A stretch of 64,000 nucleotides of DNA from Streptomyces sp. MST-110588 (lineage in GTDB: Bacteria > Actinomycetota > Actinomycetes > Streptomycetales > Streptomycetaceae), in the NCBI RefSeq assembly GCF_022695595.1, contig NZ_CP074380.1, forward strand, positions 3,608,001-3,672,000, in the 5' to 3' direction. Positions 5,296-51,419 of this stretch are shown here, piece after piece (positions within the stretch are counted from its first letter, which is position 1; each line of letters begins with the position of its first letter). The translations under genes were made by a program, and so were the position numbers. The notes under the pieces are model-generated. The model had not been told where the DNA came from. It worked only from the letters and a program-made list of their open reading frames with translations, and ran no database searches.

Positions 5296-6123
5296 GTGCC
5301 CACTCACATACGCGCGTTCTCCCCCAATCGCCGCCAGGCGCTGGCCGGTATCGGCGCGGCCGTCCTGGGGCTCGCCGTCGGCGCCGCCCCGGCCGCGCGG
5401 GCCGCCCGGCGCCCGGCCACCGCCGCGTTCCCGCCGGACGACCCGCGCGCGCGGTTCGTCGACGTGGACGGCGCCTTCAACGTCCGGGACGTCGGCGGCT
5501 GGAAGGCCGCCTGCGGCGGCACGATCCACCAGCGCACGTTCTTCCGCGGCAGCACGCTCAGCCGGCTCAGTGACACCGGCGTCACCCAGCTCGCCGCCCT
5601 CAAGCTGTCCGTGGACGTCAACTTCCTCAGCCGCGCCGAAGTGGACAAGGGCAAGCCCGACCGGCTGCCCGCGGGCGTACGGACGGTACCGGCGCCGGTC
5701 GAGGACCCGGGTGGCGGTCACACCGGCGGCTTCGACACCACCAAGCCCGACGCGGGGGTGCTGGAGGAGTTCCGCGGCTACGTGACCTCCGCGCAGGCGC
5801 GCGGCTCCTTCGGACTCGCGGTGCGCGAGGTCGCGGCGCTGGACGGCAAGCCGTTCTACCTGCACTGCAACTCCGGTACGTACCGCACCGGCTGGGCCAC
5901 CGCCGTGCTGATGACGGCCCTCGGCGTGGACCGCGCCCAGGTCGACCAGGAATTCCTGCTCAGCAACCTCACCTTCGGCACCACCTACGCCTGGACGGAG
6001 TACCTGGACGCCGCCTTCCAGCAGGCCGATACCTCCTTCGGCTCCTTCGGCGGCTACCTCAGCCGTGGCCTGGGGGTGCGCGACGCCGACCTGCGGCGAC
6101 TGCGCCGGTCGCTGCTGGGCTGA
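5296..6123 (+). CDS. Tat-exported CX5R (tyrosine-phosphatase-like) phosphatase
   Basis: Predicted secreted phosphatase of the Y_phosphatase3 type (PF13350-like), 275 residues from GTG 5296, which follows GAGGAAA. Residues 11-38 look like a Tat signal: twin arginine in NRRQALAG, a hydrophobic run, then an AARAA cleavage region. The N-terminal family signature FNVRDVGGWK and the P-loop HCNSGTYRTG (C191, R197) give the cysteine-arginine catalytic pair. Family members dephosphorylate phosphotyrosine, phosphoinositides or small phosphates. Its presence in a cluster with two PEP-dependent phosphotransferase-like enzymes suggests, as inference, that it removes a protecting phosphate from the exported product, much as StrK does for streptomycin-phosphate. 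A housekeeping role is the alternative. Confidence 0.82.
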   Translation: MPTHIRAFSPNRRQALAGIGAAVLGLAVGAAPAARAARRPATAAFPPDDPRARFVDVDGAFNVRDVGGWKAACGGTIHQRTFFRGSTLSRLSDTGVTQLAALKLSVDVNFLSRAEVDKGKPDRLPAGVRTVPAPVEDPGGGHTGGFDTTKPDAGVLEEFRGYVTSAQARGSFGLAVREVAALDGKPFYLHCNSGTYRTGWATAVLMTALGVDRAQVDQEFLLSNLTFGTTYAWTEYLDAAFQQADTSFGSFGGYLSRGLGVRDADLRRLRRSLLG

Positions 6124-6156
6124 CCGCCGCCGCAGGACAAGCTGCCGCCGTACGGC

Positions 6157-6197
6157 AGAGGGGGGAAGGAGCACCGGCGGTGCTCCTTCCCCCCTCT
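6157..6197. terminator. Perfect 19-bp stem terminator between convergent genes
   Basis: Left arm agaggggggaaggagcacc (6157-6175), loop GGC (6176-6178), and an exact complementary right arm (6179-6197). It lies between the convergent phosphatase (ends 6123) and ketoreductase (ends 6250), so it can serve both strands. There is no U-tract, as is common in Streptomyces. A smaller hairpin, CTGCCG-N5-CGGCAG (6142-6158), abuts it. Confidence 0.88.
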
Positions 6198-6249
6198 GTG
6201 TCCCGCGCTCCAGGCCGGCCCGCGCCCGCGCTGCGCCCGGGTCCGTCGT

Positions 6250-11129: not shown

Positions 11130-14100
11130 CTAGTGGACGGGCGAGCCCCACAGTTCGGCGTACGGGCCGTTGGCGGCCAGGAGTTCTTCGTGGCGGCCGG
11201 TTTCGGCGAGGCGGCCGTCGGCCAGTACGGCGACCCGGTCGGCGTGGGCGGCGTCGGACGGGCGGTGGGTGATCATGATGGTGGTACGGCCCCGGGCGGC
11301 GCGCAGCACGGCTTCCAGGAGGGTCGCGTCCCCGTGCGAGGTGGCCTCGTCGAGCAGCAGCAGGGCCGGGTCGGCGAGCAGTGCGCGGGCCAGGCACAGC
11401 AGTTGGCGGCGGCCCGCGGAGAGCGTGGAGGTCCGCTCGTCCAGGACGTGGCCGTAGCCGCCGGGGAGGGCGATGACGGCCTCGTGGACGCCGGCGAGTG
11501 CGGCGGCGGCCTCGATCTCCTCGTCGGTGGCGTCCGGTCGGCCGTAGGCGATGTTCTCCCTGATGCTGACGGGCAGCAGGAACGGCTCCTGGGGTACGTA
11601 GCCCACGAGCGCCCGGCCGTCCGCGGGCCACGCCGAGCGCAGTTCGATGCCGTCCAGCAGGACCCGGCCCTCGGTGGGCGGGTGGAGTCCGGCGATCAGC
11701 TTGACCAGGGTGGACTTGCCCGCTCCCGAGGCGCCGACCACTGCCAGCGTCTCCCCCGGTGCCACTTCCAGGTCCACGCCGCGCAGGATCTGCGGGCCGT
11801 CCTGGTAGCGGAAACCGACTTCCTCCAGTCGCAGGCGCGCTCCGGACGGGTGGGACGGTGTCCACGTCGTCGTGGTGCGGGCGCCGGTGCCGGTGTCGGT
11901 GTCGGGCCTGGCCGCGAAGACCCGGCCCACGCGGTCCATGGAGACCCGCAGTTGCTGCCAGGAGTCGAAGAGCCCGAACATCTGCTGGAGCGCCGGGTAC
12001 ATCAGGCCCAGGCACAGCACGCACACGACCAGCCCGGACGGGGCGATCCGGTGACCTTGGACCAGTACGGCGCCGACGCCGAGCAGTGCCACCGTCCCGA
12101 GGTCGAAGACCAGGTCGATGAGCGGGAAGTAGGTCGCCACCAGGCGCTGGGTGCGCATCCTGGCCTCGGCGTAGCCGCGGGCCGCGGCGCGGAAGACTTC
12201 CTGGCGCTGCCCGTCCGCCCCGTACGCCTGGGACTCCCGGGCCCCCGAAAGGCTCTCCTCCAGGCTGCCGGTCAGCTCCGTGACCCGCTGCCGGGTGAGC
12301 CGGTACTGCCGGGCGGAGAGCCGTTGGCAGACCAGTGCGAGCACGGCCAGCGGCACCAGTGTCGCCAGCACCACGCCCGCCAGTGCCACGCTGACGCCGG
12401 TGATCACGACCAGTGCCACCAGGAACGCGCAGAGCGCCACCACGATGCTCGCCGGCCCGGAGGAGAGCATCTCGGACACCGCGTCGGCGTCGGTCGCCAC
12501 GACCGTGAGCAGGTCGCCACCCCGGTGGCGCTCGATGCGGTCCACAGGCAGCCGCAGCAGGTGGGACCACACCCGGGTCCGCAGTTCGTGCACGACGCGC
12601 TGGCCCATGGTGTTCGCCAGCACCGCCAGCGCCCGCAGGCCCGCGTACTGGAGGGCGACCACCGCGGCGAACGCCAGGCCGTACCCGGCCAGCGCCCATC
12701 GGTCACCGCCCGGGCCCAGGTCGATCACTCCTTGGGCGAGCACCGGGCGGACGGCGCCGCCCACGGCGTCGAGCAGTACGAGCAGGGCCACGCCCAGCAG
12801 GGCCCGGCGGTGCGCCCGCAGCAGCTCCGGCCAGCGGAACCGGCCGCCGTCCTCGGAGGGCGGGGCGGGCAGCGGCCGGGGGCCGGAGTTCTTGACGGGG
12901 TGCTTCGCGGGGTGCTTCGTGAGGCCCGGGGCGGAGTTCTGGACGAGGTCGCGGGTGGCGTTCCCGGCGGGGTGCGGTACGGCTTTCCGGCCTACCGTTC
13001 CCGCAGGTGGCGCGGGCTTTACCGGCGGTACGGCAGCGGACAGCAGCGCCCGGTAGGCGGGGTGGCCGCGCCACAGCTCCTCGTGGGTGCCCTCCGCCGC
13101 GACGGCCCCGTCGGCGAGCAGTACGACCCGGTCGGCCAGGGCGATCAGGGCCGGCCGGTTGCCGACGATCAGGGTGGTGCGGCCGGCCACCGCCTCCCGG
13201 AGGGTGTCGGCGATCTCCTGTTCCAGCGCGGGGTGCACCGAGCTGGTGACGTCGTCCAGGACCAGTACGCGCGGGTCGCCCAGCAGCGCGCGGGCCAGCG
13301 CGATCCGCTGCCGCTGGCCGCCGGACAGGCCCAGGCCCCGCGGCCCCACTGTGGTGTCGTACCCGTCGGGCAGACCGGCGACGAACCGGGCCAGGCCCGC
13401 GCGGGCCGCGGCGCCCTCGACCTGTGCGTCGGTGGCGTCCGGGCGGCCGTAGGTGATGTTGTCGCGGATCGTGCCGGAGAACAGGAAAGGGTCCTCGAAC
13501 GCCACGGTGGCCTGCGCGCGCAGGGAAGCCGGCGTCACCGAGGCCACGTCGGCCCCGTCGAGCAGCACCCGCCCGCGCGTGGGGTCGTGGAAGCGCGCGG
13601 GCAGCATCGCCGCCGTGGTCTTGCCCGAGCCGGACGCGCCGACCAGGGCCACCGTCTCGCCGGGCGCGACACGCAGGGTGAAGCCGTCGAGCACCGGGCG
13701 GTCCGGGTGGTACGCGAAGGACACCCCTTCGAAGATCAGCTCGCCGGGGCCGTCCGGGAGCGGCCGGGCGTCCGGGCGCTCGGCCACGGCGGGTGCGGCG
13801 TCCAGCACTTCGAAGACGCGGTCCGCCGAGGCCCGGGCCCGGTTGAGTGTGGTGACGGTGGTGGCCAGGACGGCGGTCGGGCCGACCAGCATGGCCAGGA
13901 AGCCCGTCGCCGCCAGGAAGGCGCCGACACCGACCTCACCGCGCAGCGCCAGCCAGCCGCCGGCCAGCAGCACGACGAGCTGCCCGGCCGCGGGCGCCGT
14001 GGTCAGCAGCGCCTCTTTGCGTGCCTGGAGCCGTGCCGCGCCCAGCCGGGCCCGCAGCAGCCCGGCCGACTCGTCCTGGACGCGCCGGGCCTCGCGGTGT

Positions 14101-14762
14101 TCCTGCCGGTACGCCTTGACCACGCGGATCCCGGCGAGTGCCTGGGAGACGGTCTGGGTCAGCTCGCCCTGCCGCTGCTGCGCGTACGTGGTGGCCTGAC
14201 TCAGCTCCCGGCCGCCCCGGTGGGCGAGGTAGATCATGACCGGGATCAGCAGGGCGGTGCAGCCCGCCAGCGGTGGGCTGATCAGCACCATCGTGCCCAG
14301 GCCCGCGACCGTGAAGAGCAGCGCGCCGAAGGCGCCCGGCAGTTTGGCCAGGGCCCGTACCAGCGTGCCGGTGTCCGAGGTGACGCGGGAGATGATCTGC
14401 CCGGTCGACAGGTCGTGCCGGGCCGGGCCGTCCAGCCGCTGGCCGTGCCGGTGCAGCAGGTCGCGCATCTGGTACTGCGCCTCGGTGACGATCTTCGCCT
14501 GGCGGTACAGGCAGCTCCGCTTGGCCACCAGGACGACCACCGCGACCGCGACGAACAGCGCCACCCAGCGCGCCGCCTGCCCGGGCTGTCCCCGGACCGC
14601 GGCGTCGACGATCCGCTGCTGGGCCAGCGGCACGACCGCCGAGAGCAGGGAGCCCGTACAGGCGCCCACGAACGCCAGCACCAGGTCCAGGCGGTTGCGG
14701 CCCAGGAACCGCCACAGCCGCCGCACCCACCAGACGCGCGGTCCCGTGCCCCGGTCAGCCAC
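11130..14762 (-). CDS. Fused ABC exporter (TMD-NBD-TMD-NBD)
   Basis: A 1210-residue full-length exporter made of two fused half-transporters of the MsbA/multidrug type, presumably exporting the cluster product. Each half has about six membrane segments and an ATPase domain. NBD1 has Walker A GASGSGKTT, signature LSGGQRQRIALARALL and Walker B VLVLDD; NBD2 has GASGAGKST, LSAGRRQLLCLARALL and LLLLDEATS. In NBD1 the catalytic glutamate after Walker B is Asp, so one ATP site is likely degenerate, as in heterodimeric exporters. GTG 14762 overlaps the upstream stop by 8 bp and follows GGAGG; an in-frame start further upstream would overlap by about 100 bp. Low-complexity linkers (DTDTGTGARTTTTW) are present. 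Confidence 0.93.
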   Translation of the reverse strand: MADRGTGPRVWWVRRLWRFLGRNRLDLVLAFVGACTGSLLSAVVPLAQQRIVDAAVRGQPGQAARWVALFVAVAVVVLVAKRSCLYRQAKIVTEAQYQMRDLLHRHGQRLDGPARHDLSTGQIISRVTSDTGTLVRALAKLPGAFGALLFTVAGLGTMVLISPPLAGCTALLIPVMIYLAHRGGRELSQATTYAQQRQGELTQTVSQALAGIRVVKAYRQEHREARRVQDESAGLLRARLGAARLQARKEALLTTAPAAGQLVVLLAGGWLALRGEVGVGAFLAATGFLAMLVGPTAVLATTVTTLNRARASADRVFEVLDAAPAVAERPDARPLPDGPGELIFEGVSFAYHPDRPVLDGFTLRVAPGETVALVGASGSGKTTAAMLPARFHDPTRGRVLLDGADVASVTPASLRAQATVAFEDPFLFSGTIRDNITYGRPDATDAQVEGAAARAGLARFVAGLPDGYDTTVGPRGLGLSGGQRQRIALARALLGDPRVLVLDDVTSSVHPALEQEIADTLREAVAGRTTLIVGNRPALIALADRVVLLADGAVAAEGTHEELWRGHPAYRALLSAAVPPVKPAPPAGTVGRKAVPHPAGNATRDLVQNSAPGLTKHPAKHPVKNSGPRPLPAPPSEDGGRFRWPELLRAHRRALLGVALLVLLDAVGGAVRPVLAQGVIDLGPGGDRWALAGYGLAFAAVVALQYAGLRALAVLANTMGQRVVHELRTRVWSHLLRLPVDRIERHRGGDLLTVVATDADAVSEMLSSGPASIVVALCAFLVALVVITGVSVALAGVVLATLVPLAVLALVCQRLSARQYRLTRQRVTELTGSLEESLSGARESQAYGADGQRQEVFRAAARGYAEARMRTQRLVATYFPLIDLVFDLGTVALLGVGAVLVQGHRIAPSGLVVCVLCLGLMYPALQQMFGLFDSWQQLRVSMDRVGRVFAARPDTDTGTGARTTTTWTPSHPSGARLRLEEVGFRYQDGPQILRGVDLEVAPGETLAVVGASGAGKSTLVKLIAGLHPPTEGRVLLDGIELRSAWPADGRALVGYVPQEPFLLPVSIRENIAYGRPDATDEEIEAAAALAGVHEAVIALPGGYGHVLDERTSTLSAGRRQLLCLARALLADPALLLLDEATSHGDATLLEAVLRAARGRTTIMITHRPSDAAHADRVAVLADGRLAETGRHEELLAANGPYAELWGSPVH

Positions 14763-15516
14763 CGACCGCGACCTCCGCCCTGAGCGGGGCCCGCCCGGCC
14801 CGGACGGCGGCGCGGGCCCGTACGGTGGCGCGGGCGCGGGCGGCGGCCCGGGCACGGGCGCGCATCGTGGCCAGCAGCGGCTTGCCGAGCACCTTGCTGG
14901 CCAGGGCGAGGCCGGCCAGCGCGACCAGGGTCGGCAGCGGGGAGACCACGACCGCCACGCTCAGCGGCGTGGTGTAGACGATCACCACCCGCAGCGCTGC
15001 CGCGACGATGAAGCCGGCCCCCCACAGCACGTTGAGCAGCCGGAACCGGCGTACGAACGCCGGGTCCTGCGCCCATGCGGCGTCCCAGGCGGCGGTCAGC
15101 CGCGGGTCGCCCTTGGTGATGAAGGGGGTCACCACGTCGTTGATGACGGTCCGTCCGAGGAACGTGGTGACCAGGCCGTAGACGCCGCCCAGCGCGGGCA
15201 CCACGGCCGACTTGGCCAGCACCAGCCGGGCGTCGCCCGTGACGAAGGTCAGGACCAGGCTGCCGGCCAGCGTGACCAGCATCATCAGCGGGAAGGCGTT
15301 GAGCCGGCGCGAGCGCACGGCGCCGATGACGGTACGCACCCCGGCCGCGGCGGCCCCGACGCTCAGCGCGAGCACCGGCCCGGCGCCGAAGAGGAAGTGC
15401 AGGACGAAGAAACTGGCGGCGGGCGCCGCCATGTCGAGCAGCAGCGGGTAGACGGTACGCGCGGCGGGGCCGCGCAGCACGGACAAGCGCGTCGACAAGG
15501 ACATCGACAGGGACAT
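14755..15516 (-). CDS. VC0807-like polytopic membrane protein (copy 1)
   Basis: 253-residue multi-pass membrane protein with about six hydrophobic segments, then a basic Ala/Arg-rich tail (RARARAAARARATVRARAAV). It resembles the VC0807/DUF3159-like family; no enzyme motif is recognised. Internal landmarks are VRSRRLNAFPLMM, FVTGDARLVLAKSA and FITKGDPRLTAAWDAAWAQDP. A homologue with the same landmarks (TRRRRMDF-like loop, FVTDDPRVVAVKPS, MATKGDPAREIAYDRAWVES) lies at 52806, again directly after an FAD monooxygenase. ATG 15516 follows GGAAGGAAG. The conserved pairing suggests the membrane protein and monooxygenase work together, for example holding a lipophilic substrate at the membrane or in transport; this is inference. 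Confidence 0.78.
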   Translation of the reverse strand: MSLSMSLSTRLSVLRGPAARTVYPLLLDMAAPAASFFVLHFLFGAGPVLALSVGAAAAGVRTVIGAVRSRRLNAFPLMMLVTLAGSLVLTFVTGDARLVLAKSAVVPALGGVYGLVTTFLGRTVINDVVTPFITKGDPRLTAAWDAAWAQDPAFVRRFRLLNVLWGAGFIVAAALRVVIVYTTPLSVAVVVSPLPTLVALAGLALASKVLGKPLLATMRARARAAARARATVRARAAVRAGRAPLRAEVAVGG

Positions 15517-15566: not shown

Positions 15567-16787
15567 TCAGACCCCGGCGAGCCGGCGGGCGCGGAATACG
15601 GTCTCGGCGCCGCGCAGCGAGCCCTGCACCGCTTGGTGGGCGTAGCCGCGCATGGCGTCCTCGTACGCGGCGATCGCCGCCACGGGGTGGGTGCCGCGCT
15701 CCGCGGCGGTGGCCAGGTGGGAGGACAGCAGGGCGGCGTCGCGCAGCGCCGTGTTGGCTCCCACGCCGCCCACCGGGGTCGTGGCGTGGATGCAGTCGCC
15801 GAGCAGGGTGATCCGGCTCGGCTCCCAGCGTTCGGGCAGGGGGACGGCCCGGATCGACAGGGCGAAGGTGCTCTCGCGGTGGGCCCGCGCCACCATCCGG
15901 CGCAGGACCGGGTGCCAGCCCTCGGTCATCTCCGTGGCCAGGGCGTGCAGTTGGAGCGGCCCGGCGGCGAACAGCTCGTCCTCCGGCACCGGGTAGCCCT
16001 CGGCCGGGGCGACCAGGGTCCACTTGAGGTAGTCGCCGACGGGGTCCAGTTCGGCCTCGGGCGCGTGGCGGCGTACCGCCTCGGGGATGGGCGTACGCGG
16101 CCGGAAGACGCCCAGCGCCAGGGTGCGGCGGTCGGGGCCGAGGACCGGCCGGGAGCCGCCGAGCAGCTCCGGCGGGATCCACGACAGCGCCTCGGCGTCC
16201 AGGGCCATGTGCCCGTAGACGCCGCGCAGTCCGGTGTCCAGCACCTGCGCGTGCGGCAGCCGCTGCTGCCGGGCCAGGGAGTTGATGCCGTCGGCGATGA
16301 CGAACACCTCGGCGGCCTCGCTCGCCCCGTCCGCGAAGCGTACGTGCACCGTGTCGCCGGCCGCCTCGTAGCCGACGACCGTACGGCCGAAGTGCACCAC
16401 CTCGCGCAGGCCCGTCAGCAGGACCTGCCGCAGGGTGCGCCGGTTGACCACCATGCTGGCCCGGGCCGGGTCGAGCGGCGTGCCGGCGGGCCGGTGGGCG
16501 CCCAGTTCGTTGAGCTGTTCGTCGTAGGTGACCCCGCGCGGCATGTACAGCCGGTTGGAGGTCGCTTCCAGGAGCGCGTAGAGGCGCTCGGGCAGGCAGG
16601 CGGCGAGCGCCGCGCGGCCGAACTCGTCGATCCGCAGCCGGTAGCCCTGCAACCGCGAGTCCGCGGTGCGGTCGGCCTCGTACACCGCCACGTCGATGCC
16701 ATGGGCGCGCAGGCCCTGGGCCAGGCACAGGCCGCCGACCCCGGCGCCCGAGATCACCACGCGCGGCGCTCTGGTGGGCTTGTTCAT
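15567..16787 (-). CDS. FAD-dependent aromatic monooxygenase (copy 1)
   Basis: Class A flavoprotein monooxygenase, 406 residues. It has N-terminal VVISGAGVGGLCLAQGL (GxGxxG for FAD), a middle DGINSLARQQ segment, and the GD motif LLGDCIHATTPVGGVGANTA that binds the FAD ribityl. The family includes TetX, rifampin monooxygenase and polyketide hydroxylases. It could hydroxylate, epoxidise or Baeyer-Villiger oxidise the aromatic core. Its closest visible relative is copy 2 at 51487, with long shared stretches (MALDAEALSWIPPELLGGSR vs MPLDAEALDWVPPELLGGSR). Unlike copy 2 it lacks the 30-residue polar insertion near residue 105. ATG 16787 follows GGAGGA. Downstream is the VC0807-like membrane gene; upstream is the amidohydrolase. 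Confidence 0.92.
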   Translation of the reverse strand: MNKPTRAPRVVISGAGVGGLCLAQGLRAHGIDVAVYEADRTADSRLQGYRLRIDEFGRAALAACLPERLYALLEATSNRLYMPRGVTYDEQLNELGAHRPAGTPLDPARASMVVNRRTLRQVLLTGLREVVHFGRTVVGYEAAGDTVHVRFADGASEAAEVFVIADGINSLARQQRLPHAQVLDTGLRGVYGHMALDAEALSWIPPELLGGSRPVLGPDRRTLALGVFRPRTPIPEAVRRHAPEAELDPVGDYLKWTLVAPAEGYPVPEDELFAAGPLQLHALATEMTEGWHPVLRRMVARAHRESTFALSIRAVPLPERWEPSRITLLGDCIHATTPVGGVGANTALRDAALLSSHLATAAERGTHPVAAIAAYEDAMRGYAHQAVQGSLRGAETVFRARRLAGV

Positions 16788-16826: not shown

Positions 16827-17804
16827 TCAGCTCACCGGCGCGGCGGTCGCGGCTCCGGCCCCGGCCCGGGTTCCGGCTCCGGCTCCGGTTCCGGCGAAGC
16901 GGGGGAAGAGCGCCAGCGCGTTCTCGCGGTCGATCAGGCGCCGCTGGTCTTCGGTGAGCGGTGCGGCGTCCAGGCCGCGTACGCAGTCGGTCACGGCGTC
17001 GGCGGGCGCGGCACACCAGTCGGTGCCGAACAGGATCCGCTGCGGCGGTACGGCCTTCAGCAGGCTCGGCAGCGCGTTGGGGCCGGTCAGCGCCGTGTCG
17101 TAGTAGAGCCGGTGCAGGCCCTCGGCGATCCGCTTCGGGTCGTGGCCGAAGAAGGCCGGGCCCAGCCAGCGCACCCGGTCGGCGGCGTACGGCAGGAAGC
17201 CGCCGCCGTGCGACAGGATGAACCTGATGTCCGGGTACTTCTCCAGCGCGCCGGACAGGATCAGGCTCAGCCCGCCGCGAGTGGTGTCGAGCAGGAAGTC
17301 GGCCAGGACGTACGGAACGTTCATCGGCGCGGTGTCCGGCAGGGCCATGGGGTGCACCAGCACCACCGCGGCGCGCCGGTTCAGCTCCTCCAGCAGCGGC
17401 TCGTAGAGCGCGTCGCCCAGGTAGGCGCGGCCGGCGTGCGGGATCAGCACCACCCCGTCGGCCTTCAACTCCTCGTACGCGTACGCCACTTCCTCCAGCG
17501 CGGCGTCCACGTGCGGCATCGGCAGCCCGGCCAGCAGGCCGAAGGTATCCCGGCGGTCCGCGGCGAACTGCGCGACGCACTCGTTGGCGGCCCGGTTGAA
17601 CCGGGCGGCGGTGGCGGCGTCGGTGAAGAAGTCCCCGGGGATCGCGTTGGAGATCAGCGCGGCCCCGATGCCGTTCGCCGCCATCAGCCGCTCGGTCCCG
17701 GCGAGCGACCAGGGGATCTTGAAGGGGGCGCCCACCTCCCGCATCAGCTCGGCGATCCCCGGGAGGATGGCGTGGTGGTGGACGTCGATCCGGCGTGCGG
17801 TCAT
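16827..17804 (-). CDS. Amidohydrolase-2 family (ACMSD-like) hydrolase or decarboxylase
   Basis: TIM-barrel metal enzyme of the Amidohydro_2 family (PF04909-like), 325 residues. Ligands visible are HxH in IDVHHHAILPG, His in VVLVHPMALPD, His in FILSHGGGFLPY and Asp in LFGTDWCAAPADA, so the active site is complete. This family contains non-oxidative decarboxylases (ACMSD, gamma-resorcylate type) and C-C or ester hydrolases, so loss of a carboxyl from the polyketide is a reasonable inference. The C-terminus is a low-complexity tail (GTGAGAGTRAGAGAA). Its ATG overlaps the stop of the PEP-utilising enzyme (ATGA). The second PEP/FMO cassette at 49-53 kb lacks this gene. Confidence 0.83.
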   Translation of the reverse strand: MTARRIDVHHHAILPGIAELMREVGAPFKIPWSLAGTERLMAANGIGAALISNAIPGDFFTDAATAARFNRAANECVAQFAADRRDTFGLLAGLPMPHVDAALEEVAYAYEELKADGVVLIPHAGRAYLGDALYEPLLEELNRRAAVVLVHPMALPDTAPMNVPYVLADFLLDTTRGGLSLILSGALEKYPDIRFILSHGGGFLPYAADRVRWLGPAFFGHDPKRIAEGLHRLYYDTALTGPNALPSLLKAVPPQRILFGTDWCAAPADAVTDCVRGLDAAPLTEDQRRLIDRENALALFPRFAGTGAGAGTRAGAGAATAAPVS

Positions 17805-20383
17805 GTTCCTCTCCTGGAGTCGGCGGGCGGCGGCCCGGCGCTGTCGGCGGACCGGCGTACGGGGCTGTCGGCGGCCCGGCGTACGGTGCCCCGGGAGCCG
17901 TCCACCACGAGCCGGTCGCCGTCGCGGAAGTCCCGCGTCGCGGTGCCGGTGGCCACCACCGCGGGCACCCCGTACTCACGGGCGAGGGTCGCCGGGTGGG
18001 ACAGCAGGCTGCCCCGGTCGGTGACCAGCGCGCCCACCGACGGGAACAGCACGGCCCACTGGGCGGTGGTGTGCGGGCACACGAGTACGTCTCCGGCGCG
18101 CAGCCGGCCGAATCCGGCCGCGTCCGTGATCACCCGCGCGGTGCCGGTGTACCGGCCGGGGGACGCGGCCACGCCGTGCAGCGTCTCCCGCGCGTCCGCG
18201 CGGCCCGCCACGGCTCCCGCGCCGAAGACGCCCATCGTCCAGCGGGCGGCGTCCATGACGGCGCGGGCAGCGGGGGACGGTTCGGGGTCCCCGGGCTCCG
18301 GTTCGGCCGGGCGCGGGGGCGGGCCGTACACGGGCGGGCCGGGGTGGGCCAGGGCCCAGGCGTGCCCGCCGCGGCGGGGCGCCACCACGCCCACGGCGGG
18401 CGGTGTTCCTTCCAGGGCCGCCAGGACCTCCTCGTACTCCAGGAAGAGCACGTCGTCAGGGGTGGCCAGGGCTCCGCGGGCCGCGAGGCGGGAGCCTGCC
18501 TCCAGCACCGCGTAGCGCATGAGCGCCCACAGCGACACCGCGTGGAAGGACTTCTCGTCCCGGACCGGGCTGCTGAGGTCGGAGTCGGCCAGCGCCGTCT
18601 CGAACCGTTCGCGGTCGGCGGCGGGGCGGGCGGCGAGCGCCGCGCGGGCCCTGGCCACCGCGGCGGCACGGCGGGCGGCGAGCCGCTCCCGCTCGGCGTC
18701 GACGTCGTACGGCTCCGCCACCTGCGCGCGGACCAGCCCGAGCACCACCTCGGGCTGCTCGGCCAGGGTCGGCTCGGTCAGGGTGAAGCCGGGCGTACGG
18801 TGCCCGTACTCGGCGAGGTACGCGGTCAGGGCCGCCTGGAAGCCGGGGTCCGCGGGTTGTTCACCCGCCTCCAGCGCCTGCCGTACCCCCGGCGTGGCGG
18901 CGGCGAGCCGGGCCAGGTCGCCGATGCGCGCGGTGGCCGGTACGTGGTCACCGGCCAGGCCACCGCGCAGTTCCAGGGTCTGGGCGGGCTCCCAGCCCAG
19001 CAGCTCGGAGCAGATGTGGCCGAGCCGCCCGAGCAGGAAGGACGAGGCGCCGCTGAGCCGGAAGTAGCGGTCGTGCAGGACGGTGAACGCCTCGCGCAGC
19101 GCGTCCAGATGCCCGGCGAGGGCCTGGTCGCTCAGCGGAGGCAGGGCGACGGACCGCAGGCCGGCGATCCGCCCGGCGGTCTCGGCCTTCCACTGGCCGT
19201 GCCAGCGCTCGACCACCCGCCGCGGCTCGCCGTCGGCGACCCGCACAGCGATCTCCTCGATCCGCCGGAGGAGCTCGGCGGCGGTGTCGGGCCGGTAGTT
19301 GGCGTACGGCCAGCCGCCGATCTCCACGGGGCGGGGCCGCAGGCCCGTACTGAAGGCGAACAGGTGCGGCGAGGCCGCGGTGAGGACCGGCAGCAGCAGC
19401 GAGCGGACGAACGGCACCCAGGGCCGGTCGAAGCTGGGGTCGCGCATGGAAGTGCCCGGGGGCGCCTCTATGGGCACGGGGAGGTGGGGGACCAGCGCGT
19501 CCGGTACGCCGGTGACGGGCCGGGCCTGCAACAGCCACAGCCGCCCGCCGCCAAAGGCCCACTCGACGTCCTGGGGGCGGCCGAACCGCGCGGCGACCGA
19601 CCGGGCCAGCTCGGCGACCTGCCGGATCTGCTCGGGCGTGGCGATCCCGTCGGCGCCGTCCGTGCTGTCCGTACCGTCCCCACTGCCCGTGCTGTCCGTG
19701 CCGTTCGGACCGTCCACGTCGTGCGTGGCGTGTGCGCCGGAGGTACGGCGGGGCCGCCCGTCGCGGACCGCCCATTCCTCGGCGGTGACCTCCCCGGCCA
19801 GCAGCCGCTCGCCGAGGCCGCGCACCACGCTCACCACGGCTTCCTCGGGGTCGAGGGTGACGACGTTGACGGTGAAGGCGGCGCCGGCCAGTTCGGCGTC
19901 CACCATGACCTGGATCAGTACGCCGACCCCGCCGCCCTGCGCGTCGGCTTCCCGGGCGTCCCGGGCGTCCGTGCCCCCGGCGCCCTTCGCCGTACCGCGG
20001 TAGGCGCGGACGCGCTCGCCGGACCCCGAGGACCAGCAGGCACGGACCGCCTCGAACACCGCGTCCGTCCCGCGCACGTTCAGGAACGACTCGTACTGTC
20101 CCGCGTACGACAGCCCCGTAAGGTCTTCGGCGACGCCGGAGGAGCGCACCGCCACGGCGCGGTCGCCGAGGGCGGCCAGCACCTCGCGGAGCCGTTCGAG
20201 CAGCTCATCCCCCTGGTACGGCCCGGCGTCCCGGCCGAACACCGCGTCCAGCGTCCGCGCGCCGATGACCCAGCCTTCCGGCACCTCGTAGCCGGCGCCG
20301 CGCAGCTCACCGAGCACGGCCGCCTTGCGGCCGACGCGTGGTGCGTCGTCGAGCCCGACCTCGGACAGGGACAGGACGTCCAT
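17801..20383 (-). CDS. PEP-synthase / rifampin-phosphotransferase-like enzyme (copy 1)
   Basis: An 860-residue enzyme of the PPDK/PEP-synthase superfamily. The N-terminal ATP-grasp part starts with VGRKAAVLGELRGAGYEVPEGW and has SSGVAEDLTGLSYAGQYES. A large middle domain (about 300-700) has no PEP synthase match that I recognise. The C-terminal swivelling domain carries the phosphohistidine in GSLLSHPATLAREYGVPAVV (His796). No classical C-terminal PEP/pyruvate barrel follows. This ATP-grasp/middle/His order is that of rifampin phosphotransferase, which phosphorylates an antibiotic hydroxyl. It may therefore phosphorylate the product (self-protection) or an intermediate (activation for elimination); both are inference. 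Two Gly/Asp/Thr-rich insertions (around 180 and 225-245) are absent from copy 2. A candidate SARP site lies upstream. Confidence 0.87.
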   Translation of the reverse strand: MDVLSLSEVGLDDAPRVGRKAAVLGELRGAGYEVPEGWVIGARTLDAVFGRDAGPYQGDELLERLREVLAALGDRAVAVRSSGVAEDLTGLSYAGQYESFLNVRGTDAVFEAVRACWSSGSGERVRAYRGTAKGAGGTDARDAREADAQGGGVGVLIQVMVDAELAGAAFTVNVVTLDPEEAVVSVVRGLGERLLAGEVTAEEWAVRDGRPRRTSGAHATHDVDGPNGTDSTGSGDGTDSTDGADGIATPEQIRQVAELARSVAARFGRPQDVEWAFGGGRLWLLQARPVTGVPDALVPHLPVPIEAPPGTSMRDPSFDRPWVPFVRSLLLPVLTAASPHLFAFSTGLRPRPVEIGGWPYANYRPDTAAELLRRIEEIAVRVADGEPRRVVERWHGQWKAETAGRIAGLRSVALPPLSDQALAGHLDALREAFTVLHDRYFRLSGASSFLLGRLGHICSELLGWEPAQTLELRGGLAGDHVPATARIGDLARLAAATPGVRQALEAGEQPADPGFQAALTAYLAEYGHRTPGFTLTEPTLAEQPEVVLGLVRAQVAEPYDVDAERERLAARRAAAVARARAALAARPAADRERFETALADSDLSSPVRDEKSFHAVSLWALMRYAVLEAGSRLAARGALATPDDVLFLEYEEVLAALEGTPPAVGVVAPRRGGHAWALAHPGPPVYGPPPRPAEPEPGDPEPSPAARAVMDAARWTMGVFGAGAVAGRADARETLHGVAASPGRYTGTARVITDAAGFGRLRAGDVLVCPHTTAQWAVLFPSVGALVTDRGSLLSHPATLAREYGVPAVVATGTATRDFRDGDRLVVDGSRGTVRRAADSPVRRSADSAGPPPADSRRGT

Positions 20384-27215: not shown

Positions 27216-27219
27216 GGCG

Positions 27220-35131: not shown

Positions 35132-35218
35132 GGCACCTTCCGCTTGTGTGACTGCTGGTACGCGTCGTGCACGTGTACGTGGCTGCTTGTACGCGGCGGG
35201 CCGCTCGCGCACGGCTTT

Positions 35219-38464: not shown

Positions 38465-38512
38465 CGTTTGCCTCCCCATCCCTGGTCACCCCCGCAGGGT
38501 GCGGGCCGTGCT

Positions 38513-38530
38513 TCGAATGCGGCTCAAGGC
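38513..38530 (-). promoter_or_regulatory. Candidate SARP heptad direct repeat upstream of the NRPS/PKS operon
   Basis: On the coding strand heptads TTGAGCC and TCGAAGC begin 11 bp apart, about 49 bp upstream of the ATG at 38464. This would be the main promoter of the NRPS/PKS operon. The divergent glycosyltransferase starts at 38685. Same layout as the sites at 20460 and 3574. Confidence 0.42.
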
Positions 38531-38557
38531 GCCGTCGGCGGGCGGCGGGCCCGGGAC

Positions 38558-38603
38558 GGGGCGCGGCACGGGGGCTTGGCGGGGCGCGGTACGGGGACTT
38601 GGC
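38558..38603. repeat. 23-bp tandem direct repeat in the divergent NRPS/glycosyltransferase promoter region
   Basis: Two adjacent copies (38558-38580 and 38581-38603) of a G-rich 23-mer ending in cttggc differ at two positions. The period of about two helical turns would place equivalent faces of a DNA-binding protein side by side. It could also be simple slippage. Confidence 0.75.
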
Positions 38604-38684
38604 GGGGTCCTGTCCGGGCGAACCGTTCTGGATCGCGGCTCGATGGGGCGGCCCGACGGTGACGCAGAAGATTGGGAGGTCGCG

Positions 38685-39854
38685 ATGCGTGTCTTGTTCG
38701 TCACGTGGGCCTGGCCGTCGCACTTCTTCCCGTGCGTTCAGCTCGGCTGGGCGCTGCGGGCAGGCGGGCACGAGGTCCTGGTCGCCAGTCAGCCGTCGCT
38801 CACCGACGGCATCACCCGGGCGGGGCTGCCCGCCGCCGCCGTGGGCGAGGACGTGGACGTGGGCGCCCTGGCCGGCCGGTACTTCTCCTGGCTGGTACGG
38901 CAGGAGCGGCCGGTGGAGTGGGAGGAGATGCGGGCCTGGGGCGCCGGCAACGTCATCACCTACAAGCGGATCGCCGAGGCGATGTTGGAGGACACCCTGT
39001 CCCTGGCCCGGGACTGGCGGCCCGACCTGGTCGTCTTCGACCCGACGACGTACGCGGGTCCGCTGGTCGCGGCCCGGCTGGGGGTACCGGCGGTCCGCCA
39101 CATCTGGGGCATGGACTACACCCTGCGCACCCGCGAGTTCGAGCCGGAGGCACTGGCCGACCTGTGCGGGCGTCTGGGGATACCCGGGGTGGAGACCCTC
39201 GGTGACCTCACCGTGGACCCCTGCCCGCCGTCCTTGCAGGTCCAGGCGCCCGTCGACCGGCTCACCATGCGCTTCGTGCCGTACAACGGCCCGGCGGTGG
39301 TGCCGGACTGGCTGGTACGGCCCCCCGAGCGGCCCCGGATCTGTGTGGTGGAGAGCAGTGCGGTCACGCAGTGGGGCGGGCCCGAGGCCGCCCTGTCGCC
39401 CGTCGCGCTGGAGGCGCTCGCCGGCACCGACGCCGAGGTCGTCGTGGTGGGCGCCACGGCTCTGCCGGACGGGCCGCTGCCGCCCCGTACCCGCGTGGCC
39501 GGCCGGATCGCGCTGCACCTGCTGCTGCCCACCTGTGACCTGCTCGTCCACCAGGGCGGGGGCGGCGCGGTGATGACGGCGTTGGCGGCCGGGGTGCCGC
39601 AGCTCGTCCTGCCGCGCTTCGCCGACCACCTCTTCAACGGGCGCCGGATAGCGCAGGCGGGCGCCGGCCGCGAGGTGTTCGCGGGCCGGGCCACCGCCGA
39701 GCTGGTCCGCGCCGAGGCCGAGCTGCTCCGGAAGGACGACAAGTACCGCGTGCGCGCACAGGAGTTGAGGGACGAGATGGCGCAGCAGCCGTCGGCGGCC
39801 GAGGTGACCGGCCGACTGGCCGGGCTCGTGGCGGAGCGGGGGCGGCGGTCATGA
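38685..39854 (+). CDS. Glycosyltransferase (GT1, macrolide/aromatic type)
   Basis: 389-residue GT-B glycosyltransferase that would transfer one of the cluster deoxysugars from its dTDP form. N-terminus MRVLFVTWAWPSHFFPCVQLGWAL and the donor-binding segment LLVHQGGGGAVMTALAAGVPQLVLP are typical of the DesVII/UrdGT group. ATG 38685 follows GGGAGGT. No partner auxiliary (DesVIII-like) protein is seen. It is coupled to a second, unrelated-looking GT1 gene by an ATGA overlap, so two sugar attachments are predicted. Confidence 0.93.
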   Translation: MRVLFVTWAWPSHFFPCVQLGWALRAGGHEVLVASQPSLTDGITRAGLPAAAVGEDVDVGALAGRYFSWLVRQERPVEWEEMRAWGAGNVITYKRIAEAMLEDTLSLARDWRPDLVVFDPTTYAGPLVAARLGVPAVRHIWGMDYTLRTREFEPEALADLCGRLGIPGVETLGDLTVDPCPPSLQVQAPVDRLTMRFVPYNGPAVVPDWLVRPPERPRICVVESSAVTQWGGPEAALSPVALEALAGTDAEVVVVGATALPDGPLPPRTRVAGRIALHLLLPTCDLLVHQGGGGAVMTALAAGVPQLVLPRFADHLFNGRRIAQAGAGREVFAGRATAELVRAEAELLRKDDKYRVRAQELRDEMAQQPSAAEVTGRLAGLVAERGRRS

Positions 39855-41035
39855 GCCGGATCCTGTTCACCACCCAGCCCGCCGGCGGGCATCTGCGCCC
39901 GCTGGTGCCGATCGCGCAGGCAGCCCTGCTGCGCGGCCACACCGTGGCCGTCTCGGCCCCCGCCTGCATGGCCGAGGAGCTGGCCGGGTACCGGCTGCCG
40001 CACCTGGTCGGCGGCTACGACTGGCGCTACGACGTCTACCGCATGCTGCCCAAGGGGTACGACCGGCAGGACTTCGCGGCGGCGGCCGACACCTTCCGCG
40101 CGCTGGGCGAGCCCCTGACCCGGGCCTTCGCCGGCCATGTCGCCCGGCGCACCGCCGCCGACATCCTGGGCCACGACTGGCGGCCCGACCTGGTCGTACG
40201 GGAACTGGACGAGTTCGGCGGCTACCTGGCCGCCGAGGCGCTCGGTGTCCCGCACGCGGCGGTCATCTCCTTCGGCGGGCTCGACGGCGTCACCGGCCCC
40301 GTACTGGGCCCGGTCCTGGACGAGGGCCGCCGGGAGCTGGGCCTGCCCGCCGACCCCCGGGGCGAACGGCTCTACCGGCATCTGACGGCCGGGTTCCTGC
40401 CGCCCGAGCTGGGCGCCTCGGAGCTGATGCTGCCCGCCACCCGCTGCTACCGGCACATCAACGCCGAGCGGGCCGCCGACCGGCTGCCGTCCTGGCTGGC
40501 CGGCCTGGACCTGTCCCGGCCGCTGGTCTTCGCCGCCTTCGGCACGGTGGTCTACGGGCTGCCCGGCTCGTCCCGGTTCGTCGAGGAGGCCATCGCCGCG
40601 CTCGGGGACGTGGACTGCACCGCCGTACTGGCCCTGGGCGCCGGCGCCGACACCCACGACGCCGCCCGGAAGGTCCCCGGCAACGTCCGCCTCGTCGACT
40701 TCGTCGACCAGGCGCTGATGCTGGAGGGCTGCGATCTCTTCGTCACCCATGGAGGACTCAACAGCATGAAGGAAGCCCTGCGCCTGGGGGTGCCCATGGT
40801 GACGGTCCCGGTGCTGGACGACCACCGGCACAACGCCGGCCTGTTCGCCGCGGCCGGCCTCTCCCGTACGGTCCCGCTCGCCACCGCCAACCGGCGGACG
40901 ATGGCGCACGAGATCGGGCGGGCGCTCGCGGACCCGGCCTTGCGGACCGCCGCCCGCCGGGCGCAGCGGCACCTCCACGCGCTGCCCGCCCTGGACACGC
41001 TCGTCGATGACCTGGAAGCGCTGATCACACGATGA
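39851..41035 (+). CDS. Glycosyltransferase (GT1, second)
   Basis: 394-residue GT-B enzyme of the MGT/UGT type: start SRILFTTQPAGGHLRPLVPIA, donor-site motif DLFVTHGGLNSMKEALRLGVPMV with the catalytic-region HGG and the later DDHRHNA. It differs strongly from the upstream GT, so it should use another donor or acceptor, for example the second sugar of a disaccharide. Its start overlaps the previous stop (ATGA) and its stop overlaps the PPTase start (ATGA). Confidence 0.94.
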   Translation: MSRILFTTQPAGGHLRPLVPIAQAALLRGHTVAVSAPACMAEELAGYRLPHLVGGYDWRYDVYRMLPKGYDRQDFAAAADTFRALGEPLTRAFAGHVARRTAADILGHDWRPDLVVRELDEFGGYLAAEALGVPHAAVISFGGLDGVTGPVLGPVLDEGRRELGLPADPRGERLYRHLTAGFLPPELGASELMLPATRCYRHINAERAADRLPSWLAGLDLSRPLVFAAFGTVVYGLPGSSRFVEEAIAALGDVDCTAVLALGAGADTHDAARKVPGNVRLVDFVDQALMLEGCDLFVTHGGLNSMKEALRLGVPMVTVPVLDDHRHNAGLFAAAGLSRTVPLATANRRTMAHEIGRALADPALRTAARRAQRHLHALPALDTLVDDLEALITR

Positions 41036-48840: not shown

Positions 48841-48953
48841 GCGGCCCCGCGCGGACACGGGCGAGCCGGAACGGCCCGATCAGGCCGGCCGGGCTTGAAC
48901 GAGACTCCAAGTGGAACCCAACGTACGGATGTGGGCTGAATCCCCACACAAGA

Positions 48954-49001
48954 CACACGACACACAGCACACGACACACAGCACACGACACACAGCACAC
49001 G
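48954..49001. repeat. 14-bp tandem repeat (3.4 copies) in the leader of PEP-enzyme copy 2
   Basis: Three perfect copies of cacacgacacacag at 48954-48995, then a partial copy to 49001, ending 27 bp before the start codon at 49029. The sequence is CA-rich and would be unstructured in mRNA. The number of copies may vary between isolates. GGAGGAG follows between it and the start codon. Confidence 0.93.
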
Positions 49002-49028
49002 TCACCGCTGCGGAGGAGCGAGCGATCC

Positions 49029-51419
49029 ATGGGTGTTCCGGATCTGTCACAGATCGGCCTGGCGGACGCACCGGCCGCCGGACGCAAGGCCGCCGTACTG
49101 GGCGAGCTGGCCCGGGCCGGGTTCGACGTCCCGGCCGGCTGGGTCCTGAGCACGGACCTGATGGCCGGGGCGTTCGGCCCGGGCGGTGACCTCACCAGGC
49201 TGCGGGAGAGCGTCGCCGCGATCCTCGCCGAGGCGGGCGACGTCCCGCTCGCGGTGCGCTCCTCCGGCGTCGCCGAGGACCTGGAGGGCATGTCCTACGC
49301 GGGCCAGTACGAGTCGGTGCTCAACTGCCGCGGCGCGCAGGAGGTGCTCGACGCGGTCCGTACGTGCTGGGAGTCCGGGTCCAGCGAACGGCTGGCCGCC
49401 TACCAGGGCGACGCCCCGGCCGGCGGGGTGGCGGTCCTGGTCCAGGAGATGGTGGACGCCGATGTCGCCGGGGTCGCCTTCAGCGTCAACGCGCTGACCG
49501 CCGACCCCGACGAGGTCGTGGTCAGCGCCGTGCGCGGGCTCGGCGATCGGCTGATGTCCGGTGAGGCGACGGCCGAGGAATGGGCCGTACGCGACGGTGC
49601 CGCGCGCCGCACCTCCGGCGAGGAGCAGGTGGCCGACGAGGCGCTGGTCCTGCGGGTGGCCGAGCTGGCCCGCGCGGTCGCCGACCGGTTCGGCGCGCCC
49701 CAGGACGTCGAGTGGGCCGTGTCCGGCGGCCGGCTGCGGCTGCTCCAGGCCCGTCCGGTCACCGGGCTCCCGGACGAGCTGGTGCCGCATGTACCCGTCC
49801 CGGTGGATGTGCCGCCGGGCACCTCGATGCGCGACCCGAACTTCGACCGGCCTTGGACCCCGTTCGTACGGTCGGTGTTCCTGCCGGTCTTCACCCGGGC
49901 CGCACCGCACGTGTTCGCCTTCACCACCGGCGCCACCCCGCGCCCCACGGTCATCGGCGGCTGGCCGTACGTCAACGTCCTGCCCGACACCATGCCCGAG
50001 CTGGTCGCCAGGCTGGAGAAGATCGCCGAGCGGTTCGCCGCGGGCGACCCCCTGGAGCTGGTGCGCCGCTGGGAGGGCGGCTGGAAGGCCGAGACCGCCG
50101 CGGCCGTCGCCGAGCTGCGCGCGGTCGACCCGGCGGCCCTGGACGACTCCGCGCTGACCGCCCACCTCGAACGTCTCCTGGACGCCTTCGCCACCCTGCA
50201 CGACCGCTATTTCCAGCTCAGCGGCGCCTCGGCGGGCCTGCTGGGGCGGCTCGGCGCGACCTGCGCCGAACTCCTCGGCTGGGACGCCGCCAAGACGCTG
50301 CTGCTGCGCGGCGGCCTGGTCGGCGACCACGTACCGGCCACCGCCGGGGTCGGGGACATGGCGCGCTACGCCGCCGGCCGCCCGGAGGTACGGGCCGCGC
50401 TGGAGGCGGGCGAGCGCCCCGCCGACCCGGGCTTCACGGCCCTGCTGACCGCCTATCTCGCCGACTACGGCCACCGCACCGCCGGGTTCACCCTGACCGA
50501 ACCGACCCTGGCCGAGCAGCCCGAGGTGGTGCTCGGGATGGTCCGCGCCCAGCTCGACGCGCCCTACGACCTGGACGCCGAACGGGCCAGGCTGGAGGAG
50601 CGCCGCGCCGCCACGGCCGCCGAGGCCCGCGCCGCGCTCGCCGACCGCCCCGAGGCCGACCGGGAGCGCTTCGAGCGCGCCCTGCTCGGCTCCGACCTCA
50701 GCGCACCGATCCGCGACGAGAAGTCCTTCTACGCCGTGTCGCTGTGGGCACTGCTGCGCTACGCCGCGCTGGAGGCCGGGGCCCGGCTGGCCGCCGCCGG
50801 AACGCTCACCGCCCGCGAGGACGTGCTGTTCCTGGAGTACGAGGAGGTGACCGCCGCCCTCGCCGGACGGACCCCCGCCGAGGGCCTGGTGCGCCACCGC
50901 CGTGGCGAGCACGCCTGGGCGCTGGCCCACCCCGGCCCGCCGGTGCTCGGCGAGCCGCCCGCACCGCCGCGGCCCGTACCGGACATGACACCGCCGTCCC
51001 CGGCCGCCCAGGAGGTCATGCGGGGCGCCGAGTGGTCGATGGGCGTCTTCGGCGCGGGCGCCGCCGCGGCCCGCCAGGAGGAGGACACCCTGCACGGCGT
51101 CGCCGCCTCCCCCGGCCGCCGCACCGGCACCGTACGCGTCATCAACGGCGTCGCCGAGTTCGGGCGGCTGCGCGCCGGCGAGGTGCTGGTCTGCCCGGAG
51201 ACGACCGCGCAGTGGGCGATCCTCTTCCCGGCGGTCGGCGCCCTGGTCACCGACCGCGGCAGCCTGCTCTCGCACCCGGCGATCATCGCCCGCGAGTACG
51301 GCGTCCCGGCGGTCGTCGCCACCCGTACCGCCACCGCGTTCCTGCGCGACGGCGACCTGGTCACCGTGGACGGCAGCACCGGCACCGTACGCCGTGAACG
51401 CGCGGGCGGCCCGACGTGA
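49029..51419 (+). CDS. PEP-synthase / rifampin-phosphotransferase-like enzyme (copy 2)
   Basis: 796 residues, clear paralogue of copy 1 at 17801. Start MGVPDLSQIGLADAPAAGRK at ATG 49029 is supported by GGAGGAG; the very long upstream open frame is not coding. ATP-grasp region has SSGVAEDLEGMSYAGQYES; the swivelling domain has GSLLSHPAIIAREYGVPAVV (His749). Shared middle-domain stretches such as SMRDPNFDRPWTPFVRS and TPRPTVIGGWPYVN mark the two as duplicates. Copy 2 lacks the low-complexity insertions of copy 1. An exact 39-bp stretch of this gene (50562-50600) recurs inverted at 51440-51478. Function as for copy 1: phosphorylation of a product or intermediate hydroxyl. Confidence 0.87.
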   Translation: MGVPDLSQIGLADAPAAGRKAAVLGELARAGFDVPAGWVLSTDLMAGAFGPGGDLTRLRESVAAILAEAGDVPLAVRSSGVAEDLEGMSYAGQYESVLNCRGAQEVLDAVRTCWESGSSERLAAYQGDAPAGGVAVLVQEMVDADVAGVAFSVNALTADPDEVVVSAVRGLGDRLMSGEATAEEWAVRDGAARRTSGEEQVADEALVLRVAELARAVADRFGAPQDVEWAVSGGRLRLLQARPVTGLPDELVPHVPVPVDVPPGTSMRDPNFDRPWTPFVRSVFLPVFTRAAPHVFAFTTGATPRPTVIGGWPYVNVLPDTMPELVARLEKIAERFAAGDPLELVRRWEGGWKAETAAAVAELRAVDPAALDDSALTAHLERLLDAFATLHDRYFQLSGASAGLLGRLGATCAELLGWDAAKTLLLRGGLVGDHVPATAGVGDMARYAAGRPEVRAALEAGERPADPGFTALLTAYLADYGHRTAGFTLTEPTLAEQPEVVLGMVRAQLDAPYDLDAERARLEERRAATAAEARAALADRPEADRERFERALLGSDLSAPIRDEKSFYAVSLWALLRYAALEAGARLAAAGTLTAREDVLFLEYEEVTAALAGRTPAEGLVRHRRGEHAWALAHPGPPVLGEPPAPPRPVPDMTPPSPAAQEVMRGAEWSMGVFGAGAAAARQEEDTLHGVAASPGRRTGTVRVINGVAEFGRLRAGEVLVCPETTAQWAILFPAVGALVTDRGSLLSHPAIIAREYGVPAVVATRTATAFLRDGDLVTVDGSTGTVRRERAGGPT
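50562..50600 (+). repeat. Left arm of 39-bp inverted repeat (within PEP-enzyme copy 2)
   Basis: Exact reverse-complement match to 51440-51478, 839 bp apart. This arm is coding (residues around 512-524, PYDLDAERARLEE). Matching continues imperfectly for about 19 bp beyond (four or five mismatches). Confidence 0.96.

What the first reader, a model, noticed from the sequence alone, without database searches (positions are those of the whole stretch)
5296..51419. Possible phospho-prodrug self-protection: two RPH-like phosphotransferases, an exporter and a Tat-secreted phosphatase
The cluster holds two enzymes with rifampin-phosphotransferase-like layout (ATP-grasp, large middle domain, swivelling His domain), both with the catalytic His in SLLSHP(A). 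It also holds a full-length ABC exporter in the copy-1 operon and, at 5296, a CX5R phosphatase with a twin-arginine signal. Antibiotic phosphorylation inside and dephosphorylation outside is established for streptomycin (StrK). A PEP-superfamily version within a type II PKS cluster would be new to me. The alternative is phosphorylation as activation for a dehydration step.
Basis: partly seen in the sequence, partly recalled or inferred. Interest (0 to 1): 0.78.

Follow-up and report, generated by a model that had tools for sequence, protein, structure and literature searches.

The report
Kinase–membrane-protein module in polyketide cluster
A bacterial gene cluster predicted to make a sugar-decorated aromatic polyketide carries two kinase-like enzymes, each grouped with a small membrane protein, that would likely add phosphate to the compound before export; its phosphatase-like protein with a predicted export signal has lost catalytic residues in some related clusters, so the proposed removal of that phosphate outside the cell remains doubtful.

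Summary
The parts exist. Two full-length dikinase-like proteins (17801-20383 -, 49029-51419 +; 64% identical) keep the catalytic His; the model of copy 2 matches rifampin phosphotransferase (RPH) over most of its length. An ABC exporter lies in the copy-1 operon; at 5296 is a CX5R PTP-fold protein with a twin-arginine N-terminus. New here: (1) the dikinases fall in a clade apart from RPH and prodigiosin ligases; 14 of 19 related loci show a type II PKS. (3) The PTP gene lies within 60 kb in 10 of 13 KSα-plus-dikinase clusters and 0 of 11 other type II PKS loci of the same genomes, so 'absent from homologous clusters' does not hold. (4) But the 13 PTPs aligned all lack the P-loop Lys-Asp of MptpB-type phosphatases; two have Asp for Cys, and the two Nocardia copies have Val for Arg yet are under purifying selection. 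Phosphorylation coupled to export is the best reading (0.42); on-pathway activation is nearly as likely. The outside-phosphatase step is unproven.

The parts
17801..20383 (-). Dikinase copy 1 (PEP1, 860 aa): ATP-grasp, middle domain, swivelling His domain
   Evidence: Pfam PF01326 + PF00391; GSLLSHPA and RDEK stretch; tree
49029..51419 (+). Dikinase copy 2 (PEP2, 796 aa)
   Evidence: 64% identical to copy 1; AF2 model pLDDT 92.2 matches LmRPH 5hv1 over 715 residues
16827..17804 (-). Amidohydro_2 (ACMSD / carboxyvanillate-decarboxylase-like), adjoining copy 1
   Evidence: found in 10 of 11 clusters with the RDEK-type dikinase, window included
15567..16787 (-). FAD monooxygenase 1 of the copy-1 unit
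   Evidence: 59% identical to FMO2
14755..15516 (-). MEMb: small multi-TM protein (253 aa) after FMO1, no Pfam family over its cut-off
   Evidence: TM count by simple hydropathy
11130..14855 (-). Full-length ABC exporter (2 membrane + 2 ATPase stretches); ORF bounds, true start probably slightly later
   Evidence: 43-53% identical gene follows the MEM pair in L008, L009, L010, L014
20703..22082 (-). Cytochrome P450 (P450b) upstream of copy 1
51394..52782 (+). FAD monooxygenase 2 of the copy-2 unit (ORF bounds)
52806..53507 (+). MEMa: small multi-TM protein (233 aa) after FMO2, 37% identical to MEMb over 175 residues
5296..6123 (+). PTP-fold protein (275 aa) with twin-arginine N-terminus and HCNSGTYRTG loop
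3639..4160 (+). Anthrone-oxygenase-like PF08592 protein, hydrophobic segments, same direction upstream of the PTP gene
4214..5248 (+). O-methyltransferase-like gene (OMTb), 47 bases before the PTP gene; start approximate
   Evidence: named through its relatives (the Umezawaea homologue, 43% identical, is Methyltransf_2)
25972..31862 (-). Type II PKS core: ABM (25972-), KR 26316-27053, PF08592 (27220-), aromatase 27684-28154, ACP (28151-), KSβ 28558-29970, KSα 29781-31058, cupin (31055-), cyclase 31539-31862
31859..38479 (-). NRPS pair A-T-C (31859-35212) and T-C-A (35219-38479)
38250..41035 (+). Two EryCIII-like glycosyltransferases

Best explanation
The two dikinases would likely transfer phosphate from ATP through the conserved histidine to a hydroxyl of the aromatic polyketide inside the cell, and the charged compound would likely leave through the neighbouring predicted ABC exporter with help from the small membrane proteins. 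Shown from sequence: intact ATP-grasp and His motifs, an RPH-like predicted fold, a recurrent run of dikinase, (amidohydrolase, flavin monooxygenase,) small membrane protein and, in four relatives, exporter, and a PTP-fold gene with a twin-arginine N-terminus that recurs in such clusters. Inferred: that the substrate is the cluster's polyketide (a phenol is the likeliest site, since RPH-fold dikinases such as HpeHI phosphorylate phenols), that phosphorylation is a mask rather than a leaving group, and that the exporter carries the phosphorylated form. In this lineage, where the PTP loop keeps Cys and Arg, the PTP-fold protein is predicted to remove the phosphate outside; in Nocardia, Crossiella and one Amycolatopsis it cannot work by the ordinary Cys-Arg chemistry, so either generic phosphatases do that job there or the protein does something else. 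Copies 1 and 2 look like one ancestral unit duplicated, with reciprocal loss of the small membrane proteins and loss of the amidohydrolase from unit 2.
Against: PTP catalytic residues are not conserved and the Arg-less pair is under purifying selection. G007 (Umezawaea) and G014 (Actinoallomurus) keep the dikinase with no PTP match in the genome; no PTP hit appeared on contigs of the lengths that hold the two closest copy-1 relatives. In several clusters the dikinase lies in the PKS core operon (after KSβ in L015, L017; next to KR in L012, L016, L018), which suits an early biosynthetic step. In the window, G001, G002, G003 and G009 the PTP gene runs with PF08592-like and OMTb genes, not the dikinase. 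A clear ABC homologue (43-53%) next to the unit was seen only in L008, L009, L010, L014; L023, L040 and L048 show 27-31% ABC matches 7-11 kb or less away. No product or phosphorylated congener is known.
Confidence: 0.42

Rival explanations
1. On-pathway activation: the dikinase phosphorylates a phenol, enol or alcohol of the growing polyketide so that phosphate can leave in a cytosolic deoxygenation, elimination or ring-forming step; the PTP-fold protein has an unrelated role.
For: Dikinase in or beside the PKS core operon in several clusters; kept where PTP matches are missing (G007, G014); a second SDR gene within about 4 kb in G010 and G013; runs with Amidohydro_2 (decarboxylase-like) and FMO in many; two copies in one cluster is easier for a biosynthetic enzyme than for a mask.
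Against: Membrane protein behind the dikinase, ABC exporter and a PTP with an export signal point outwards; no partner enzyme is universal to the clade apart from PKS core genes.
Confidence: 0.36
2. Condensing ligase, as for RedH/PigC: phosphate activates a carbonyl oxygen so that two building blocks are joined.
For: NCBIfam RedH is the best hit of copy 2 (275.6 bits) and the second of copy 1 (252.5), above RPH in both.
Against: Far below the RedH cut-off of 1350 bits; not next to RedH in the tree; no prodigiosin-type partner genes among the window ORFs scanned.
Confidence: 0.08
3. The PTP-fold protein acts on cell-envelope phospho-targets or binds ligand, and the dikinase is an unrelated tailoring enzyme; co-occurrence only reflects shared descent of the cluster.
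For: Y_phosphatase3 paralogues with signal-like N-termini occur elsewhere in the same genomes (L103-L105); remodelled loop; co-occurrence is not corrected for ancestry.
Against: PTP is kept in the divergent G010, G013, G016 clusters, which show no AmHyd2 or FMO1 hit but keep the dikinase; in 60 relatives only 12 have a match, at 32-38% identity (their loops were not read).
Confidence: 0.14

Closest known systems
Rifampin phosphotransferase (RPH, LmRPH 5hv1/5fbt; NF041857)
   Same: Domain order ATP-grasp, substrate domain, His domain; catalytic His; Arg at the phosphate site; fold match over 715 residues
   Different: About a quarter of the curated score; separate clade; Arg-Asp-Glu-Lys in place of Arg-Glu..Lys; inside a biosynthetic cluster, and no true RPH was found in this genome at E<=1e-150
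RedH / PigC prodigiosin ligases
   Same: Similar or better score; biosynthetic setting (recalled)
   Different: Separate clade, under a quarter of the cut-off
HpeHI / PpsAB / CreHI phenol dikinases
   Same: RPH-like small-molecule dikinases that phosphorylate aromatic substrates (PMC12167813, abstract and passages)
   Different: Two separate chains there, one chain here; catabolic role
MptpB-type atypical lipid phosphatases (PF13350; PMC3091653, passages)
   Different: P-loop Lys-Asp replaced by Thr-Tyr here; Cys or Arg lost in 4 of 13 aligned homologues
Streptomycin 6-phosphate / StrK self-protection (recalled)
   Same: Kinase inside, candidate hydrolase outside, in one cluster
   Different: Different enzyme families; hydrolase activity doubtful; aromatic polyketide

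Membership tests
RPH (rifamycin-inactivating phosphotransferase) | Score over NF041857 cut-off (999 bits) | tested here: not met
   PEP1 235.8, PEP2 223.7 bits
RPH (rifamycin-inactivating phosphotransferase) | Groups in a tree with proteins over the RPH cut-off | tested here: not met
   RPH rows L159-L162 lie on the other side of a branch of 0.78, support 100 (quick tree, no bootstrap)
RPH (rifamycin-inactivating phosphotransferase) | Three-domain order and swivelling His fold | tested here: met
   (fold from the copy-2 model)
RPH (rifamycin-inactivating phosphotransferase) | Arg-Glu..Lys at the drug-phosphate site | tested here: inconclusive
   Arg kept, Glu667 position Asp; RDEK here, RDDS/RDDT/RDDK in other clade members
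RPH (rifamycin-inactivating phosphotransferase) | Phosphorylates rifamycin | not testable with these tools
   needs enzyme assay
RedH/PigC ligase | Score over NF052632 / NF052631 cut-off (1350 / 1300) | tested here: not met
   252.5 and 275.6; 236.1 and 243.3 bits
RedH/PigC ligase | Groups with RedH in a tree | tested here: not met
   (RedH rows L155, L156; no PigC row)
MptpB-type PTP / atypical lipid phosphatase | PTP fold and CX5R | tested here: met
MptpB-type PTP / atypical lipid phosphatase | P-loop Lys and Asp (Asp as general acid in PMC3091653) | tested here: not met
   HCNSGTYRTG against HCxxGKDRTG; PMC7822160 names Asp82 instead as general acid
StrK-type phosphate mask and release | Exported hydrolase | tested here: inconclusive
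   Twin-arginine N-terminus by inspection; no signal-peptide predictor was on hand
StrK-type phosphate mask and release | Hydrolase gene conserved with the kinase gene | tested here: met
   10 of 13 against 0 of 11 within 60 kb, not corrected for ancestry; G007 and G014 lack it
StrK-type phosphate mask and release | Hydrolase catalytic residues conserved | tested here: not met
   Cys or Arg lost in 4 of 13 aligned homologues
StrK-type phosphate mask and release | Phosphorylated product is inactive and found in cells | not testable with these tools
   needs LC-MS and bioassay

The most novel reading that the evidence does not exclude
A new phosphate-handling export module for aromatic polyketides: a dedicated dikinase clade, a flavin monooxygenase and small membrane proteins phosphorylate and pass out the compound, and the exported PTP-fold partner has been re-tooled (Lys-Asp lost, Cys to Asp or Arg to Val in some lineages) into a non-hydrolytic, phosphate-steered maturation enzyme that finishes the molecule outside the cell with phosphate as leaving group.
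Probability: 0.13. Interest if true: 0.85.

Novelty: new variant of a known kind. Interest (0 to 1): 0.58.

Why it matters
If the dikinases phosphorylate the polyketide, this is phosphate chemistry in type II PKS assembly or self-protection; my ten literature searches (open PubMed Central papers only, judged from listings and a few passages) listed no such enzyme in a type II PKS cluster. It gives a testable genetic handle, a dikinase plus small-membrane-protein marker, for finding such clusters, and it warns against reading an RPH-like layout as antibiotic resistance. PTP-fold proteins with altered P-loops under purifying selection raise a clear enzymology question.

Tried and rejected
Calling the enzymes RPH: rejected on score and tree. 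Calling them RedH/PigC ligases: same. Naming the product: the core gene set suits pentangular polyphenols (recalled family knowledge), but no named cluster was matched; brasiliquinone was considered for Nocardia brasiliensis, but that genome has two KSα loci at 60% identity or more, so the link is open (passages only of PMC11762266, PMC7290108, PMC11766693, PMC12671133). A-domain specificity of the NRPSs was tried by eye and dropped as unreliable. Replacement phosphatases where the PTP looks dead: 20 locus ORFs sent to Pfam, two of them the PTP genes themselves, gave no other phosphatase family at E<=1e-3; they were a chosen subset of the ORFs of G005, G007, G009 and G016 listed. Neighbour genes of Actinomadura macrotermitis and Streptomyces NPDC056411, which hold the closest copy-1 relatives, could not be reached; among 55 PTP homologues none was on a contig of those lengths, which may count against the PTP link. 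For four other dikinases a PTP homologue is listed on a contig of the same length (P0007/P0124, P0042/P0125, P0039/P0126, P0012/P0142), which I take as the same contig. PTP fragments in G008 (canonical HCSAGKDRTG at a contig edge) were not counted. Searches found no paper.
Full report
WHAT IS THERE. The window is G000:C1:3608001-3672000 of a 7.9-Mb genome whose name is not given, 73% G+C. Pfam scans show one large cluster: a type II PKS core with KR, aromatase, cupin and PF04673 cyclase (25972-31862 -), two NRPS proteins, two EryCIII-like glycosyltransferases, deoxysugar genes, two DegT aminotransferases, P450s, methyltransferases and two PF08592 proteins. The cyclase set is that of pentangular polyphenols (recalled, not a tool result). 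The copies are 64% identical. Real bounds of copy 2 are 49029-51419.

I treat 19 as related: 15 placed in the 24-row clade (L008-L010, L012, L013, L015-L018, L023, L035, L037, L048, L064, L083) and four added by motif and similarity (L011, L014, L040, L042). Of the other 61, 14 were placed outside the clade in the tree and 47 were not placed. A type II PKS KSα is seen in the locus or its wider cluster in 14 of the 19: Streptosporangium, Nonomuraea, Winogradskya, Crossiella, Nocardia (two), Amycolatopsis (two), Saccharothrix, Umezawaea, Micromonospora, Streptomyces (two), Actinoallomurus. In L011, L013, L014 and L035 none was in the stretch held, and for L040 (G015) none was found in the genome at E<=1e-60. 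Two kinds of dikinase: RDEK type (window, L008-L012, L014, L018, L037, L040, L042) and RDD type (L013, L015-L017, L023, L035, L048, L064, L083). The window block P450b, dikinase, Amidohydro_2, FMO, membrane protein, ABC, sugar genes is syntenic with G002 and G003.

SMALL MEMBRANE PROTEINS. Each window dikinase-FMO pair is followed by a small multi-TM protein: MEMb 14755-15516 (-), MEMa 52806-53507 (+), 37% identical, no Pfam family over cut-off (TM count by simple hydropathy). L008-L010 and L014 have both in a row behind one dikinase-amidohydrolase-FMO set. A MEM gene lies within about 3 kb downstream of the dikinase in 11 of the 19 loci (L008-L011, L013, L014, L018, L035, L040, L042, L064); for L012 and L037 MEM genes are elsewhere in the cluster; L015-L017, L023, L048 and L083 gave no hit, nor did any of the other 61 loci at E<=1e-6, some of which have short flanks. 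In L013, L035, L040 and L064 the MEM follows the dikinase with no FMO1 or Amidohydro_2 hit. I read the window as a duplicated unit with reciprocal losses; that is inference.

THE LOOP IS REMODELLED. MptpB-type phosphatases have HCxxGKDR; the Asp is reported as general acid and its mutants are impaired (passages of PMC3091653), though PMC7822160 names Asp82 instead (passages). Paralogues elsewhere in these genomes (L103-L105) keep HCTAGKDRT. I aligned 13 homologues: 11 within 30 kb of a dikinase, L089 (88 kb) and L097 (other contig). Window, L088-L090 HCNSGTYRTG; L095-L097 GCDSGSARSG; L098, L099 HCTGGNHRTG; Crossiella L091 HDSAGVFRTG; Amycolatopsis A133 L092 HDSAGAHRSG; two Nocardia (L093, L094) HCNSGTYVTG. 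So 9 of 13 keep Cys and Arg, 2 lack Cys, 2 lack Arg, none has Lys-Asp. Among 55 database homologues, 33 have HC[NDS]SGTYRTG, 26 of these with an RR pattern near the N-terminus (one, P0150, is a fragment where it is probably spurious), so the Cys-Arg form is common and stable, which favours an active enzyme; 18 have the canonical GKDR; P0154 and P0156 have Val for Arg, P0155 has Asp for Cys. The Nocardia pair has dN/dS 0.19 over 220 codons (dikinase 0.11, KSα 0.10): kept by selection without the Arg. The dikinase His motif is intact in those lineages.

JUDGEMENT. Against it stand the unconserved phosphatase residues, clusters with the dikinase and no PTP, and dikinase genes in the PKS core operon. 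I commit to phosphorylation coupled to export at 0.42, with on-pathway activation at 0.36. StrK as the parallel is recalled, not tested. Corramycin's kinase ComG, whose cluster has no suitable phosphatase gene (one passage of PMC10996006), shows that a proposed mask need not have its own phosphatase.

Noticed in passing
window 35219-38479 (-): NRPS T-C-A has a degenerate condensation motif (CHSAVADL) and an unusual A3-like stretch, so parts of it may be inactive; seen by eye.
   Followed up: no
window 46755-47723 (-): UbiA-family prenyltransferase between the two-component regulators and the SARP; no hit to it in the homologous-cluster maps.
   Followed up: no
window 53586-54203 and 54274-55284 (+): RutE-like nitroreductase (malonic semialdehyde reductase model, over cut-off) and zinc-type dehydrogenase pair recur together in L010, L011, L012, L014.
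   Followed up: partly
L040 (Actinoplanes subtropicus) 10001-12466: Dikinase followed by MEMa with no KSα match in the genome at E<=1e-60: the dikinase-MEM pair may exist outside type II PKS clusters.
   Followed up: no
L079, L082, L086, L158: Another dikinase group (His motif GSPLTHVA in L079, L082, L086), with a P450 hit nearby in L079 and L082; L158, L079 and L082 group together, apart from RPH and RedH.
   Followed up: no
L013 (Crossiella SN42): Second dikinase of the clade with a MEM directly behind it, 172 kb from a KSα on the same contig; setting unknown.
   Followed up: no
L134:5378-6682 (-): A sulfotransferase gene about 2 kb from the dikinase in the Amycolatopsis A133 cluster, whose PTP has Asp for Cys.
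   Followed up: no
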